Shown here in pieces: positions 3,746-26,608 of a DNA stretch of 43,911 nucleotides (its first letter is position 1; every line of letters begins with the position of its first letter). The notes under the pieces are model-generated. The model saw nothing but the letters and a program-made list of their open reading frames with translations, ran no database searches and was not told where the DNA came from. The stretch is taken from the NCBI GenBank assembly GCA_012033055.1, contig JAAUPR010000005.1, forward strand, positions 6,973 to 50,883, in the 5' to 3' direction. The stretch comes from Limnothrix sp. RL_2_0. Its GTDB lineage: Bacteria > Cyanobacteriota > Cyanobacteriia > Cyanobacteriales > MRBY01. A program made the position numbers and the translations under genes.

Positions 3746-4018
3746 TTAGTAAGCTATGAATTTAGTAAAAAGATTTTTTAAAAAGCTAAATCCTGAATAT
3801 TTACAAATAAGGCAAATAAAGAAAACAATCTGCCACTTCAAATTCTTCAGACTCCTCTTCATTACTATCCCGTGGTGATGGAGAGGCATTATAGGTACTT
3901 CAACCGATGTAGAAATCACCGTGATATACCCTTCAAAAACAGGTGTAAACCCATTATTTTGACTACCAATAACACCCGAAAAAAAATATAAACAGTTAGA
4001 AATTTTCTGAAAAGTCAT
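3746..4018 (-). CDS. Possible ORF downstream of the second leader of module A
   Basis: An ATG at 4018 lies 21 bases downstream of a leader core (AATTGTT, 4039-4045 on the plus strand). In module C the corresponding ATG lies 25 bases below the same core and opens a DUF4278 gene. The frame runs 90 codons. The product shows an SGV...EGY pattern that faintly recalls DUF4278 (YRGV...GKYRG) but is not convincing, and the sequence is AT-rich. It may be a decayed relative of the module C gene or a chance ORF. The position is seen in the sequence; the homology is inference. Confidence 0.25.
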   Translation of the reverse strand: MTFQKISNCLYFFSGVIGSQNNGFTPVFEGYITVISTSVEVPIMPLHHHGIVMKRSLKNLKWQIVFFICLICKYSGFSFLKNLFTKFIAY

Positions 4019-4032
4019 GGGCCGAAATCCTA

Positions 4033-4050
4033 GAAAGAAATTGTTGTAAT
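4033..4050 (-). repeat. Module A, second leader copy
   Basis: The plus strand reads GAAAGAAATTGTTGTAAT. On the minus strand this is a pyrimidine-rich run followed by ACAACAATTTCTTTC, the element shared with 16206-16223 and 25598-25615. It precedes the ATG at 4018. Confidence 0.6.
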
Positions 4051-4082
4051 GGAAGGCGAAGACGAAGAAAAAAATAGACAAT

Positions 4083-4184
4083 TTAGCGGTGAGGAAAGGA
4101 GAGATTAATGACCGGTTTACAAATAATACAGACAATGATGAATAAGGAATTAATGTCGTGGGCTGCGAGAAAGTGAGTAATCAT
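4083..4184 (-). CDS. 33-residue hydrophobic peptide of module A
   Basis: A 34-codon frame (ATG 4184, TAA 4083-4085) lies between the two leader copies, exactly where module C carries its 36-residue peptide. The core INSLFIIVCIICKPVIN aligns without gaps with FTTLVTVFCVVYAPLLS of the module C peptide, with L, C and P at identical positions and aliphatic residues elsewhere. It would be a single-span membrane peptide. No clear Shine-Dalgarno sequence is seen. The similarity between the two loci is the main evidence that it is coding; this copy could also be decaying. Confidence 0.4.
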   Translation of the reverse strand: MITHFLAAHDINSLFIIVCIICKPVINLSFPHR

Positions 4185-4191
4185 TGATTTA

Positions 4192-4217
4192 GGAATAAAT
4201 TGTTATCTACTGATAAT
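4192..4217 (-). repeat. Module A, first leader copy
   Basis: The plus strand reads AATAAATTGTTATCTACTGA at its core. It aligns with 16270-16312 and 25777-25820 (AAATTGTT, then an A/T-rich TTATC-like stretch) and lies 8 bases before the ATG at 4184. It is the most diverged of the three first-leader copies. Confidence 0.45.
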
Positions 4218-4336
4218 CTTATTATCTTTATAAAAGATTAGAATCTCAGTGACACTAACAATATCCAGATCATGAGACTGATCGGTGTGATGCGTAATAC
4301 AAATTACATAGAGTATCCATCAAAGAACAATCATCA

Positions 4337-4352
4337 AGTGACTTAGATCACC
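4337..4352. promoter_or_regulatory. CRP-type palindrome of module A
   Basis: AGTGACTTAGATCACC fits the N-G-T-G-A-N6-T-C-A-C pattern bound by CRP-family regulators (in cyanobacteria, SYCRP1-like proteins). It is 133 bases above the leader core at 4198-4204, the same arrangement as in modules B and C. No binding evidence is available. Confidence 0.45.
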
Positions 4353-16127: not shown

Positions 16128-16153
16128 AAAAAAACTCCCGAATGCTGAGAGTT
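16128..16153 (-). terminator. Terminator closing module B
   Basis: A seven-base stem, AACTCCC (16133-16139) with GAGAGTT (16147-16153), has seven A on the plus strand (16128-16134), that is a T run on the minus strand. It lies ~55 bases below the second leader copy of module B. Confidence 0.75.
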
Positions 16154-16205: not shown

Positions 16206-16223
16206 GAAAGAAATTGTTGTGAT
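16206..16223 (-). repeat. Module B, second leader copy
   Basis: GAAAGAAATTGTTGTGATG on the plus strand, followed by a purine-rich run, is near-identical to 25598-25615 and 4033-4050. No ORF follows it on the minus strand before the terminator, so this copy may yield only a short RNA or be a remnant. Confidence 0.6.
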
Positions 16224-16269: not shown

Positions 16270-16312
16270 GAAAGAAATTGTTGCTTGTGCTCTATGACCT
16301 AAGTATCATCCG
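16270..16312 (-). repeat. Module B, first leader copy with promoter-proximal sequence
   Basis: GAAAGAAATTGTTGC, then GTGCTCTATGACCTAAGTAT and TCCG, matches 25777-25820 over about 40 bases. The small membrane-peptide ORF present at the same place in modules A and C is missing here. Confidence 0.65.
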
Positions 16313-16416
16313 TGGCGCTAGATATTTCTGTGATCCCTGAAGCGACATCCTCTGTACCTCGTCAATGGGAGCTGTGCTGGTGGCAACGAAAAAAACTGGC
16401 TGATATCGAGATCTTG

Positions 16417-16432
16417 AGTGATTTCAGTCACA
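16417..16432. promoter_or_regulatory. CRP-type palindrome of module B
   Basis: AGTGATTTCAGTCACA matches AGTGA-N6-TCACA. It directly abuts the T run of the preceding minus-strand terminator and lies 135 bases above the leader core at 16276-16282, the same distance as in module C. Confidence 0.5.
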
Positions 16433-16473
16433 AAAAAACCTCCAGCGCCTGTAGTGATGACGTTGAGAGGCTT
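16432..16473 (-). terminator. Terminator between the 59-residue ORF and module B
   Basis: On the minus strand AAGCCTCT (from 16473) pairs with the sequence ending GGAGGTTT, with an inner imperfect extension. The stem is followed by seven T (A on plus, 16432-16438). Confidence 0.6.
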
Positions 16474-16485
16474 GTTAACAATTTC

Positions 16486-16665
16486 TTATTTATACTGTAG
16501 CTGCCCGCTGGGCGAGATGGCATGGGTGAATAAACGTAAGTTTTGTCCGCTCTTTGCGCATAATGTCTTAGCCACATCGAGATTGAAATTTATGGTTTCA
16601 GCGGGCGATCTCGAAGAAAACCGCTTTGCGGTGCGCCACCCTTCAGAGAGATGAAAACGGGTCAT
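16486..16665 (-). CDS. Possible 59-residue protein
   Basis: The ATG at 16665 opens 59 codons ending at TAA 16486-16488, just above a terminator on the same strand. The product has a basic N-terminal half (RTAKRFSSRSP) and a more regular second half (INFNLDVAKTLCAKSGQNL). No membrane segment and no clear ribosome-binding site are seen. It occupies the place that pgr5 takes relative to module C. The terminator directly after it supports a real gene. The family was not recognised. Confidence 0.4.
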   Translation of the reverse strand: MTRFHLSEGWRTAKRFSSRSPAETINFNLDVAKTLCAKSGQNLRLFTHAISPSGQLQYK

Positions 16666-16786: not shown

Positions 16787-17674
16787 ATGAAAAATCATTA
16801 CCTAACCCGTTCTCTCGCTGTTCTAGTCGGGATGCTCAGTGTTCTACTCGGTAGTTGTGAACCGGAAGAGACCATCTCCTCTGCCGCAAATTCTTCTGAA
16901 ACTGAAGCTGTCACCACTCCAGAGCAATCCGCTACAATCCGCCCTGCTGAGGCTGAAACTACCACCTCTGAGTCACAACCGACTACCAATGTGCAGTCCT
17001 CAAATTTTGAGATTTCCCACTACAGCAATGAAGACTGGGCGATCGCCGTTGTAAACACTGGCAATTTTGAGACTCCGAATTTGACTTATTACGCTTGCGA
17101 TCAAGGCAAAGCTAATTGCATAGAGTTGACCGGGGGCACAGAAGAATGTGGCGGCGATGTCTGCATTTATGATTGGACGAATGGTAATGTTCGCTATAGT
17201 TTGGAGGTTTCTGAATATGCCAAATTGTTGCAGGTATACGAGAATGACAAGCTGATCTTAGAGTCCACCGATTTGCAACAGGACTATGCGCAGTTTTATG
17301 ACGATGATGTGGATCTTGTGCCACAGGACAGAGAAGAAGTGGCGGGGATTTCTGAAGCGCAATTAAAAGCTCTATTACCCAAGATTCAAAAGGCTGTTTT
17401 TACTGAAAATTGGCAAACCTTGGCAGACATAAGTGCAGATTCGGTCAACGTCAAATTTTCTGAGGATGCGGAAATGACCGCTGTGCCTAAGGCTGCGTTA
17501 GCCAAAACCCTCGCAGAGCAAGATCTAAAGACTTGGAAAATGCGCGTGATGACCCAGACTTTTGAGGATCTGTTTTTAAATCAGTACGGTGCAATGATTG
17601 GTCAAGGTTCCATCTGGATTGGCAGCAAAGCTATGGAGGATCCTGCTCAGATTATCACGATCAATATTTGGTAA
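16787..17674 (+). CDS. Predicted lipoprotein of unknown function
   Basis: The 295-residue protein starts with a lipoprotein signal peptide ending in a lipobox (VLLGSC, acylated cysteine at residue 24). A T/S/E-rich linker runs to about residue 75. A small domain follows with two cysteine pairs (YYACDQGKANCIEL, then EECGGDVCIYDW), and the end is an alpha/beta region (LLPKIQKAVFTENWQTLADI onward). It is expected on the periplasmic face of a membrane. No family was recognised. It converges with the ABC transporter gene, whose stop is 11 bases away. Confidence 0.75.
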   Translation: MKNHYLTRSLAVLVGMLSVLLGSCEPEETISSAANSSETEAVTTPEQSATIRPAEAETTTSESQPTTNVQSSNFEISHYSNEDWAIAVVNTGNFETPNLTYYACDQGKANCIELTGGTEECGGDVCIYDWTNGNVRYSLEVSEYAKLLQVYENDKLILESTDLQQDYAQFYDDDVDLVPQDREEVAGISEAQLKALLPKIQKAVFTENWQTLADISADSVNVKFSEDAEMTAVPKAALAKTLAEQDLKTWKMRVMTQTFEDLFLNQYGAMIGQGSIWIGSKAMEDPAQIITINIW

Positions 17675-25408: not shown

Positions 25409-25579
25409 CTAATAAGCCACACCACGATACTTCGAACCCTTGTTGTTAATTTCCGTATGAATATGTTGGTATCTTTGATAAGCTTGACCGCGATATTTCG
25501 CACCCTGTTCAGCGATGGTCGCTGGCAGACGAGTCGGTTGATAAGAAAAAGTTGCGCCGTGAAAGTTGAGAGTCGTCAT
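25409..25579 (-). CDS. DUF4278 small protein
   Basis: The 56-codon ORF (ATG 25579, TAG 25409-25411) encodes a protein with the DUF4278 pattern: a NFHGATFSYQPTRLP start and two KYRG units (EQGAKYRGQAYQRYQ and NKGSKYRGVAY). This is a common, uncharacterised cyanobacterial family of 50-120 residues, often near photosynthesis or stress genes. The start lies 25 bases below the second leader core of module C, and a terminator follows the stop by ~40 bases. The function is unknown. The gene is shorter than the usual cutoff for automated calls. Confidence 0.7.
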   Translation of the reverse strand: MTTLNFHGATFSYQPTRLPATIAEQGAKYRGQAYQRYQHIHTEINNKGSKYRGVAY

Positions 25580-25597: not shown

Positions 25598-25630
25598 GAA
25601 AGAAATTGTTGTGATAGAAGAAAAAAAAGT
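25598..25630 (-). repeat. Module C, second leader copy
   Basis: GAAAGAAATTGTTGTGATAG followed by a purine-rich run (plus strand) matches 16206-16223 and 4033-4050. It is the untranslated leader of the DUF4278 gene. Confidence 0.65.
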
Positions 25631-25648: not shown

Positions 25649-25759
25649 TTAGTGAACAGAACGAGCGCAGAGTATCCAACTTAGAAGCGGCGCGTAAACT
25701 ACGCAAAAAACCGTGACTAAGGTTGTGAATTGGAAGGCTACGATGAGTTCGTTAGTCAT
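25649..25759 (-). CDS. 36-residue single-span membrane peptide of module C
   Basis: The ATG at 25759 has a CCAAGGATA Shine-Dalgarno directly before it, and 36 codons end at TAA 25649-25651. Residues 6-29 are strongly hydrophobic (core FTTLVTVFCVVYAPLLS), followed by a short basic end. The peptide aligns without gaps with the 33-residue peptide of module A. It sits in a minus-strand cluster with the HLIP and pgr5 genes. By size, topology and context it resembles small light-induced membrane proteins that tune photosystem I or NDH-1 complexes, such as SliP4, but I cannot confirm sequence homology. Confidence 0.5.
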   Translation of the reverse strand: MTNELIVAFQFTTLVTVFCVVYAPLLSWILCARSVH

Positions 25760-25776: not shown

Positions 25777-25820
25777 GAAAGAAATCGTTGCGTGCTCTAT
25801 GTCTTAAGTATGCTCGTCCG
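25777..25820 (-). repeat. Module C, first leader copy with promoter-proximal sequence
   Basis: GAAAGAAATCGTTGC, then GTGCTCTATGTCTTAAGTAT and TCCG, matches 16270-16312 almost base for base. It ends 18 bases above the ATG at 25759. Confidence 0.65.
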
Positions 25821-25923
25821 CACCGGGAAACTCTGTGACATCAGCGAGGGAATCTTTGTGTCTCTCCTCAGGCGATCGCCTGCCCAATATTACGGAGAAA
25901 AGTAGACCGAAACCCCCATTTAC

Positions 25924-25939
25924 CGTGACTCCGATCACA
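25924..25939. promoter_or_regulatory. CRP-type palindrome of module C
   Basis: CGTGACTCCGATCACA (reverse complement TGTGATCGGAGTCACG) matches the CRP-family pattern TGTGA-N6-TCAC. It abuts the terminator of pgr5 and lies 135 bases above the leader core 25783-25789. Confidence 0.5.
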
Positions 25940-26030: not shown

Positions 26031-26228
26031 CTAAGCCATAAAACCGAGGCGCTTACCGTTGTTGCGAGCTAAGCGAATTAATGTTTGGCGTGCCTTGGAA
26101 TCAATACCCACAAAATTGCAAAAATTAGTAATCGCTTTGCAGTGCAGACCGATAGCTTGACCACGGGTCTGGTTGAAGCGGGACTTCCCGATTGCTTGGC
26201 GGATCAGAATAACAAGTGATGCAAACAT
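26031..26228 (-). CDS. pgr5: Pgr5-like protein (cyclic electron flow)
   Basis: The 65-residue protein is close to the cyanobacterial PGR5 homologues (Synechocystis ssr2016 type). It starts MFASLVILIRQAIGKSRFNQ, continues RGQAIGLHCKAITNFCNFVG and ends ARQTLIRLARNNGKRLGF. Pgr5 supports antimycin-sensitive cyclic electron flow around photosystem I and protects it under fluctuating or strong light. It lies 57 bases after the HLIP gene on the same strand and is followed by a terminator, so the two may be cotranscribed. The protein has its full family length. Confidence 0.85.
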   Translation of the reverse strand: MFASLVILIRQAIGKSRFNQTRGQAIGLHCKAITNFCNFVGIDSKARQTLIRLARNNGKRLGFMA

Positions 26229-26285: not shown

Positions 26286-26510
26286 TTAGAGTTGGAATAA
26301 CAAGTTGATTAGAGTGTCGCCACCAACCACTTCGGTGATGATCAAAGCAACGAAACCAATCATTGCAAGGCGGCCATTGAGCTTCTCAGCGTACTTAGTC
26401 CAACCAGCAGTATTCTCAGCGTCAACGTAGATAGTCGGCTCGACTGCGAAAGTGTTGGTGTAACCATCATCAGTAGCGATGAATCCGTCAGTTGCGTATT
26501 TGTTAGGCAT
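26286..26510 (-). CDS. hli: High-light-inducible protein (HLIP / Scp)
   Basis: The 74-residue protein has one membrane helix with the chlorophyll-binding motif ExxNGRxAMxG (AEKLNGRLAMIGFVALIITE), characteristic of the LHC-like small Cab proteins. HLIPs bind chlorophyll and carotenoid, dissipate excess energy and protect photosystem II assembly intermediates. The N-terminal ~35 residues are a soluble extension (MPNKYATDGFIATDDGYT). Upstream are TTTACAT elements like RpaB-binding HLR1 half sites and a CRP-type palindrome, in keeping with stress control. Confidence 0.9.
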   Translation of the reverse strand: MPNKYATDGFIATDDGYTNTFAVEPTIYVDAENTAGWTKYAEKLNGRLAMIGFVALIITEVVGGDTLINLLFQL

Positions 26511-26592: not shown

Positions 26593-26608
26593 TGTGATCT
26601 TGGTCACT
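26593..26608. promoter_or_regulatory. CRP-type palindrome before the HLIP gene
   Basis: TGTGATCTTGGTCACT matches TGTGA-N6-TCACT. It lies 83 bases above the HLIP start codon and just above the HLR1-like region. Confidence 0.4.

What the first reader, a model, noticed from the sequence alone, without database searches (positions are those of the whole stretch)
3746..4352. Repeated regulatory module, copy A, with constant spacing to a CRP-type site
Three minus-strand loci (A about 4.03-4.35 kb, B about 16.2-16.43 kb, C about 25.6-25.94 kb) share one design: a previous gene's terminator, a CRP-type palindrome, a leader core (AATTGTT on plus) 133, 135 and 135 bases below it, and a second leader copy further down. 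The near-identical spacing with otherwise diverged sequence points to a true family of transcription units rather than chance matches. I know of no described system with this layout.
Basis: partly seen in the sequence, partly recalled or inferred. Interest (0 to 1): 0.75.

Follow-up and report, generated by a model that had tools for sequence, protein, structure and literature searches.

The report
Small-RNA regulon of tiny cyanobacterial genes
The repeated module is a family of CRP-type promoters for very small genes whose messages carry a short sequence complementary to the front end of several tiny, terminator-ended RNA genes, which suggests a previously undescribed small-RNA control circuit in a few related cyanobacteria.

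Summary
The same promoter (CRP palindrome; TCACAG box; ATACTAAAGACATAGAG start region; leader CAACAATTTCTTTC) recurs in this genome and in two of the five other species of the genus held. The CRP site, which no search model contained, lies 126-129 bp before the start box in 27 of 31 units. Downstream genes are mostly tiny: a 33-36 aa membrane peptide, a 58 aa protein, DUF4278. The key point was missed. The reverse complement of the leader is also the predicted 5' end of 55-63-nt RNA genes with their own terminator. Of the 20 exact copies of the 14-mer in three genomes, a strong terminator follows one strand in 11 and the other strand in none. One such gene lies in the window upstream of unit B (16432-16488, minus). 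I propose sibling small RNAs that pair with leaders just upstream of start codons and repress translation. Unit B has no start codon but two leaders and a terminator, so it may be a decoy. The parts are sequence facts; transcription, pairing and direction of control are inferred. New variant of a known kind.

The parts
4337..4352 (-). Unit A: CRP-type site GGTGATCTAAGTCACT (8/10)
4247..4252 (-). Unit A: TCACTG box, 27 bp before the start box
4210..4225 (-). Unit A: start-region box ATAATAAGATTATCAG, 127 bp after CRP start; unit A found by model R3 although not in its training set (E 9.9e-4)
4192..4204 (-). Unit A: leader 1 (diverged)
4083..4184 (-). Unit A: 33-codon hydrophobic ORF, possibly a decayed F1-type peptide; no Pfam match
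   Evidence: likeness to F1 judged by eye
4033..4046 (-). Unit A: leader 2, exact CAACAATTTCTTTC
3746..4018 (-). Unit A: 90-codon ORF after leader 2, no Pfam match
16519..16539 (-). Upstream box TTACGTTTATTCACCCATGCC of the small-RNA gene before unit B
16485..16497 (-). -10-like region of the small-RNA gene
   Evidence: weakest of the 19 in the tested window (2/6)
16432..16488 (-). Predicted 57-nt small RNA: 5' anti-leader TAAGAAATTGTTA then terminator hairpin; its T-run abuts the CRP site of unit B. It is the only R2 match above noise in the window
   Evidence: a training member of R2
16417..16432 (-). Unit B: CRP-type site TGTGACTGAAATCACT
16328..16333 (-). Unit B: TCACAG box
16290..16306 (-). 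Unit B: start region ATACTTAGGTCATAGAG
16270..16283 (-). Unit B: leader 1, exact
16206..16219 (-). Unit B: leader 2, exact
16128..16153 (-). Unit B: weak terminator (-6.8 kcal/mol, 7 T); the predicted 166-nt transcript contains no ATG, GTG or TTG
25924..25939 (-). Unit C: CRP-type site TGTGATCGGAGTCACG
25833..25838 (-). Unit C: TCACAG box
25790..25811 (-). Unit C: start region ATACTTAAGACATAGAGCACGC
25777..25790 (-). Unit C: leader 1 (one mismatch, CAACGATTTCTTTC)
25649..25759 (-). Unit C: 36-codon F1-type membrane peptide
25598..25611 (-). Unit C: leader 2, exact, before the second cistron
25409..25579 (-). Unit C: 56-aa DUF4278 protein
   Evidence: PF14105, E 2.7e-8

Best explanation
A, B and C are three members of a dispersed regulon of CRP-type promoters that drive short messages, most of them for very small proteins. 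The messages carry a 14-nt leader, CAACAAUUUCUUUC or close to it, shortly after the predicted start and usually 10-20 nt before the first AUG; four measured units carry it again before a second cistron. A family of 55-63-nt RNAs (7 aligned copies in each of two species, 5 plus weaker ones in this genome), each with its own promoter-like sequence, begins with the complement GAAAGAAAUUGUUG left mostly unpaired and ends with one terminator hairpin. Mechanism: these sibling RNAs pair in trans with the leaders, cover the region just upstream of the ribosome-binding site and repress translation (or destabilise the message) until CRP-driven transcription outruns them. Unit B, with two leaders, no start codon and a terminator, would act as a CRP-induced decoy that titrates the small RNAs. 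Shown by sequence: the promoter family, its spacing, the leaders, the anti-leaders with terminators, the complementarity, and the absence of start codons in B. Inferred: that the small RNAs are made, that they pair, that they repress, and that B is a decoy.
For: Family: R1 and R3 find strong units in G000, G004 and G005, none of comparable score in G001-G003 or elsewhere in the 60 relatives and 386 phylum genomes searched (G004 was not in the 386). CRP, outside all models, at 126-129 bp in 27 of 31 units. Of all 20 exact GAAAGAAATTGTTG copies in the three genomes, the GAAAG strand enters a strong terminator in 11, the other strand in 0; random positions do so in 45 of 4000. Of the other 9, 7 have an ATG 11-18 nt after the leader and 2 are the leaders of unit B. 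Folding of 19 anti-leader RNAs leaves the seed largely unpaired (mean probability 0.56-0.98) with a 3' hairpin. Leader-seed duplexes beat all but at most 2 of 200 mononucleotide shuffles in 26 of 31 units. -10-like hexamer of 5/6 in 12 of 19 (background 3%); ACCCATGCC-like box of 8/9 or better in 6 of 19 (background 0.3%, box taken from these same sequences). In 8 of 19 the terminator T-run runs straight into a TGTGA CRP site. Second leaders begin 25-32 nt before the second-cistron ATG in four units. B: no ATG, GTG or TTG in 166 nt.
Against: No expression data. No compensatory change between a small RNA and its neighbouring leader was found; pairing rests on conserved complementarity. Five of 31 units pair no better than chance (G000_C160, G004_3b, G005_5, G005_6, G005_10). 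The 19 anti-leaders in the alignment were partly chosen for having a terminator, so 19 of 19 is circular; only the count on the 20 exact copies is unbiased. An ATG near the leader is not specific: 2 of the 11 terminator-type copies also have one 11-18 nt away on that strand, and 7 of 11 within 60 nt. The -10 of the copy next to unit B is poor (2/6) and its seed is shorter, giving only -7.1 to -10.8 kcal/mol with the window leaders. The terminator of unit B is weak (-6.8 kcal/mol). Neither A nor C has a small-RNA gene upstream. Distribution is narrow: three species.
Confidence: 0.62

Rival explanations
1. Only a promoter family: CRP and a second activator drive small genes, the leader is a translation-enhancing or RNA-stability element, and the anti-leaders have no role in trans.
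For: The promoter part is very well supported. The promoter layout also occurs without the leader in another cyanobacterial family upstream of a 66-aa protein.
Against: Leaves unexplained why 11 of 20 exact copies lie, on the complementary strand, directly before a strong terminator.
Confidence: 0.15
2. Type I toxin-antitoxin-like modules: the 33-36 aa membrane peptide is a toxin and the upstream small RNA its antitoxin.
For: Tiny one-helix hydrophobic peptides (one helix by reading); in 8 of 19 anti-leader copies the terminator T-run runs directly into the CRP site of a unit; a cyanobacterial type I candidate was reported in 2025 (PMC12390103: abstract and two sections read).
Against: The same promoter and leader serve 58-aa proteins without such a hydrophobic stretch, DUF4278 proteins and peptidoglycan-binding-domain proteins; most units have no adjoining small RNA; one shared seed is unlike independent addiction pairs.
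Confidence: 0.12
3. The 14-mer is a DNA site for a regulator, used in both orientations near starts and terminators.
For: It occurs on both strands and near promoters.
Against: Second copies lie between cistrons just before start codons; the reverse copies sit between a -10-like hexamer and a terminator.
Confidence: 0.06
4. Same pairing, opposite sign: the small RNAs stabilise or activate the messages, for instance by protecting their 5' ends.
For: The pairing site lies close to the predicted 5' end of the message (about 8-10 nt, inferred from the start box).
Against: The site stands just upstream of the ribosome-binding region also in inner cistrons, the usual place for repression (established knowledge).
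Confidence: 0.15

Closest known systems
Sibling trans-acting sRNA families (cyanobacterial Yfr2-5, seen in passages of PMC6202907; LhrC, Qrr and the like in other bacteria recalled)
   Same: Several short RNAs per genome sharing one single-stranded seed, many mRNA targets (this description of the known families is recalled).
   Different: No Rfam match; 8 of 19 copies are joined to the CRP site of a target unit; targets share a CRP-type promoter; a codon-free transcript with two sites exists.
SYCRP1 (cAMP receptor protein) regulon of Synechocystis
   Same: CRP palindrome TGTGA-N6-TCACA; review PMC4284465 (passages read) reports that several SYCRP1-regulated genes are also under Hfq control, so an RNA layer on this regulon has precedent.
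   Different: Here the CRP site lies 126-129 bp before the start box with a TCACAG element at 27 bp; the passages of the prediction study PMC2633013 that I read describe no such layout.
Type I toxin-antitoxin systems with 5'-UTR-pairing antitoxins (zorO/orzO, tisB/istR; recalled) and Microcystis msoT1/msoA1
   Same: Short hydrophobic peptide gene next to a short RNA that can pair with its mRNA.
   Different: [quoted passage not shown] here one seed matches many unrelated small genes.
SigJ J-Box promoters (GGGaAtacT) of hormogonium genes (PMC6495340, passages read)
   Same: An AtacT-type -10.
   Different: The GGG of the J-Box is present in 1 of 31 units; a CRP site and TCACAG instead.

Membership tests
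Sibling trans-acting sRNA family | Several short, terminator-ended RNA genes per genome with one conserved single-stranded seed | tested here: met
   (sequence only)
Sibling trans-acting sRNA family | Conserved complementary sites at translation starts of several mRNAs | tested here: met
   26 of 31 units beyond all but at most 2 of 200 shuffles; 5 not
Sibling trans-acting sRNA family | RNAs are expressed and regulate the targets | not testable with these tools
   no expression data
Known Rfam sRNA families (Yfr1, Yfr2 and others) | Match to the covariance model at gathering score | tested here: not met
   Searches (window; 8 loci): 0 matches
CRP/SYCRP1 regulon | TGTGA-N6-TCACA palindrome at a fixed promoter position | tested here: met
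   27 of 31 units
CRP/SYCRP1 regulon | CRP with matching recognition helix in the genome | tested here: met
   protein with RETVTR helix in all six genomes; identity with SYCRP1 itself not tested
CRP/SYCRP1 regulon | cAMP-dependent binding and activation | not testable with these tools
   needs experiment
Type I toxin-antitoxin | Small hydrophobic peptide as the regulated product | tested here: inconclusive
   F1 peptide in 7 units, 58-59 aa F2 proteins in 8 others
Type I toxin-antitoxin | Antitoxin RNA dedicated to its toxin gene | tested here: not met
   near-identical seed in the 19 aligned copies and matching leaders in most units of all kinds
Type I toxin-antitoxin | Toxicity neutralised by the RNA | not testable with these tools
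   needs experiment
SigJ J-Box promoter | GGG extension before the -10 | tested here: not met
   1 of 31 units (G005_2b)

The most novel reading that the evidence does not exclude
A self-contained RNA circuit spread by copying a cassette (small RNA gene whose terminator runs into a CRP site, then a leader-bearing small-protein operon): sibling small RNAs silence a whole class of tiny-protein messages, and CRP releases them both by raising the messages and by making a codon-free decoy RNA with two binding sites (unit B; G005_2b, with two leaders and no ATG-started ORF of 18 codons or more in the next 340 nt, may be a weaker counterpart). The promoter is older than the RNA layer, which was added in one branch of one genus.
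Probability: 0.3. Interest if true: 0.82.

Novelty: new variant of a known kind. Interest (0 to 1): 0.68.

Why it matters
It would be a multi-copy small-RNA regulon in cyanobacteria with a clear single seed, readily testable, that controls genes for proteins of about 33 to 70 residues, a size class that annotation often misses. It also defines a CRP promoter class with a rigid second element (TCACAG, 27 bp before the start box) that reaches into other cyanobacterial families, and offers a natural candidate for a CRP-induced decoy RNA.

Tried and rejected
Rfam families: no match in the window or in eight anti-leader loci. The 7-mer AATTGTT as the signature: near chance. Compensatory change between a diverged small RNA (upstream of G000_C160 and G005_7) and its own leader: looked for by eye, not found. 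Small-RNA gene upstream of A or C: none; the only R2 match above noise in the window is the one at unit B. Homology between the 58-aa family and the 66-aa protein of the other family: not supported. Presence of the CRP as the reason for the narrow distribution: rejected, all six congeners encode it. TCACAG as half of a second full CRP site: no TGTGA partner by eye. Whole-collection scan for the promoter pattern gave one match, in a Clostridium metagenome genome, taken as chance (the tool says near relatives may be left out there). Phylum scans with R2 and R3 gave only weak extra matches (3 genomes near 35 bits; 8 genomes at 20-24 bits); of the latter only G008 (L213) has both a CRP-type site and TCACAG at the family spacing. 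Literature searches listed nothing that describes this layout; the library holds open-licence papers only. Rows dropped: 8 of 39 before the unit counts (G000_C27, C67, C106, G004_7b, 14, 15, 16, G005_9); one search skipped the G001-G003 loci and L101; 4 of its 20 rows (L011, L023, L025, L078 at 983) were left out of alignment A3, of which L011 later scored 39 bits with R2; three copies were added to A3 by hand (window B, L127, L125); 6 of 31 units were left out of A4.

Full report
What was checked. The 7-mer alone is near chance, but the longer core ACAACAATTTCTTTC occurs exactly 7 times in the 4.13-Mb genome and 48 times within two mismatches, against 12 for the reversed pattern. The genome is inferred to be cyanobacterial from the many GGCGATCGCC repeats and an NtcA-type regulator (named from recall). 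The genome's name is not given; the relative G004 (5,125,950 bp) recalls Leptolyngbya sp. PCC 7376, from memory and unverified.

The promoter family. A sequence-only model (R1) from five own-genome copies found further copies here and, among 60 relatives, strong ones only in G004 and G005 of the same genus, none in G001-G003. Of 39 matches displayed, 31 had a recognisable start box and were measured. A CRP palindrome of 8/10 or better lies 126-129 bp before that box in 27 of 31; 91 control windows had a mean of 0.07 units and a maximum of 3. No search model contained the CRP site, so this is independent. TCACAG lies exactly 27 bp before the start box in 22 of 31, and TCAC in 29 of 31 (this box was inside the model, so it is not independent). 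A TGA...ACA-like element lies further up. A refined model R3 (25 units) gave 8, 12 and 9 matches at E 1e-6 or better in G000, G004 and G005 (25 of these 29 are training members). It also found unit A, which was in no model (E 9.9e-4), with CRP at 127 bp and TCACTG at 27 bp. Elsewhere in 386 genomes of the phylum nothing exceeded 24 bits (G004 was not in that sample).

What the units encode. Behind the leader come mostly very small genes: a 33-36 aa membrane peptide (F1, 7 units), a 58-59 aa protein (F2, 8 units and a possible ninth in G004_8), and DUF4278 proteins as second or only cistron (over the Pfam cut-off in G000_C, G004_1, G004_2 and G004_10). A similar ORF in G000_C80 gave no match; two F1 peptides with a DUF4278-like tail (G004_13, G005_6) stayed below the cut-off or gave none. 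Two loci encode peptidoglycan-binding-domain proteins (G000_C60; G004_14, the latter not among the 31). One unit (G004_11) has a 459-codon ORF, so not all products are small. F1-like peptides occur in a few other families of the order (best outside the genus E 2.9e-6). F2 matches were found in 22 of 386 phylum genomes at E 0.01, best outside the genus 9.2e-9 against 1.2e-28 inside.

The complementary RNAs. The reverse complement of the leader is the predicted first part of short RNA genes. All 20 exact GAAAGAAATTGTTG copies in G000 (8), G004 (6) and G005 (6) were classified: on the GAAAG strand a strong terminator follows in 11 of 20 (3, 4 and 4), on the opposite strand in 0 of 20; at random positions in 45 of 4000, so 11 of 20 by chance has a probability near 6e-17. 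Of the other nine, seven stand 11-18 nt before an ATG on the CAACA strand and two are the leaders of unit B. The ATG criterion alone is not specific: 2 of the 11 also meet it. In G001-G003 one-mismatch matches equal the control, 13 against 12; in G000, G004 and G005 they are 22, 22 and 18 against 3, 5 and 3. Nineteen anti-leader genes were aligned: seed nearly invariant, hairpin sequences diverged. Folding leaves the seed mostly free. A -10-like hexamer sits just before the seed in most (4/6 or better in 18 of 19, background 27%; 5/6 in 12 of 19, background 3%), so the seed should be at or near the very 5' end; an ACCCATGCC-like box lies further upstream in about a third. Model R2 finds these genes again, adds G000_C47 and weaker copies upstream of G000_C160 and G005_7, and finds nothing convincing outside the genus in 386 genomes of the phylum. 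In 8 of the 19 the terminator T-run runs directly into TGTGA of a CRP site; others are free-standing.

Pairing. The best leader-seed duplex per unit beats all but at most 2 of 200 shuffles in 26 of 31 units; five do not. Since leaders also begin 25-32 nt before second cistrons in four units, where no promoter of this kind is seen, the element most likely acts in the RNA. I found no compensatory changes, so pairing is an inference from conserved complementarity.

Unit B. From its start box to its terminator (about 166 nt) unit B has no ATG, GTG or TTG, but two exact leaders. It cannot make a protein by the usual starts, and is best read as a decoy for the small RNAs or as a decayed unit. A small-RNA gene lies directly upstream (16432-16488). 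Units A and C have none: R2 finds only the copy at B above noise in the window.

Depth of the promoter. An exact pattern for CRP, TCACAG and ATA at the family spacing, over 388 genomes of the order, matched 13 places in the three species of the genus and 6 in five genomes of two other families, with no match for the reversed pattern in any genome. In four of the six the start region resembles that of the genus (12 or 13 of 18 positions, for example ATATTAGAATCATAGAG) and leads to a 66-aa protein without the leader. The promoter is therefore probably older than the RNA layer.

Regulator. All six congeners encode a CRP-type protein with an RETVTR recognition helix, so its presence does not explain the restriction of the family to three species.

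Literature. Eight searches listed nothing describing this arrangement in the open-licence library. Read: passages of PMC2633013, PMC6495340, PMC4284465 and PMC6202907; abstract and two sections of PMC12390103.

Verdict. The interpretation as a family of transcription units is right but incomplete: the notable feature is a matching family of small RNA genes. I rate it a new variant of a known kind, sibling small RNAs acting on a shared leader, tied here to a CRP promoter class and a possible decoy transcript.

Noticed in passing
window 26593-26608 and 26286-26510: Another strong CRP-type palindrome (TGTGATCTTGGTCACT, 9/10) lies upstream of a 74-aa minus-strand gene that looks like a high-light-inducible protein (name from memory); it is not a member of the leader family by reading.
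   Followed up: partly
window 26031-26228: A 65-aa gene precedes unit C; a clearly similar gene precedes unit G004_6 in the relative, so the position looks syntenic although the downstream small genes differ (by eye).
   Followed up: partly
L271, L272, L277, L270: The same CRP-TCACAG-ATA promoter drives a 66-aa protein without a family match in other cyanobacterial genomes, without the leader.
   Followed up: partly
L213 (G008): A CRP-TCACAG promoter at family spacing before a 47-codon ORF in another family of the order.
   Followed up: partly
L087 (G000 C60), L082 (G004_14), L088 (G000 C67): Proteins with a peptidoglycan-binding domain (Pfam for the first two, likeness for the third) stand behind promoters of this kind, of varying strength.
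   Followed up: partly
window 16787-17674: Plus-strand protein beyond unit B with only a sub-threshold Pfam match (New_glue, E 0.007); function unknown.
   Followed up: no
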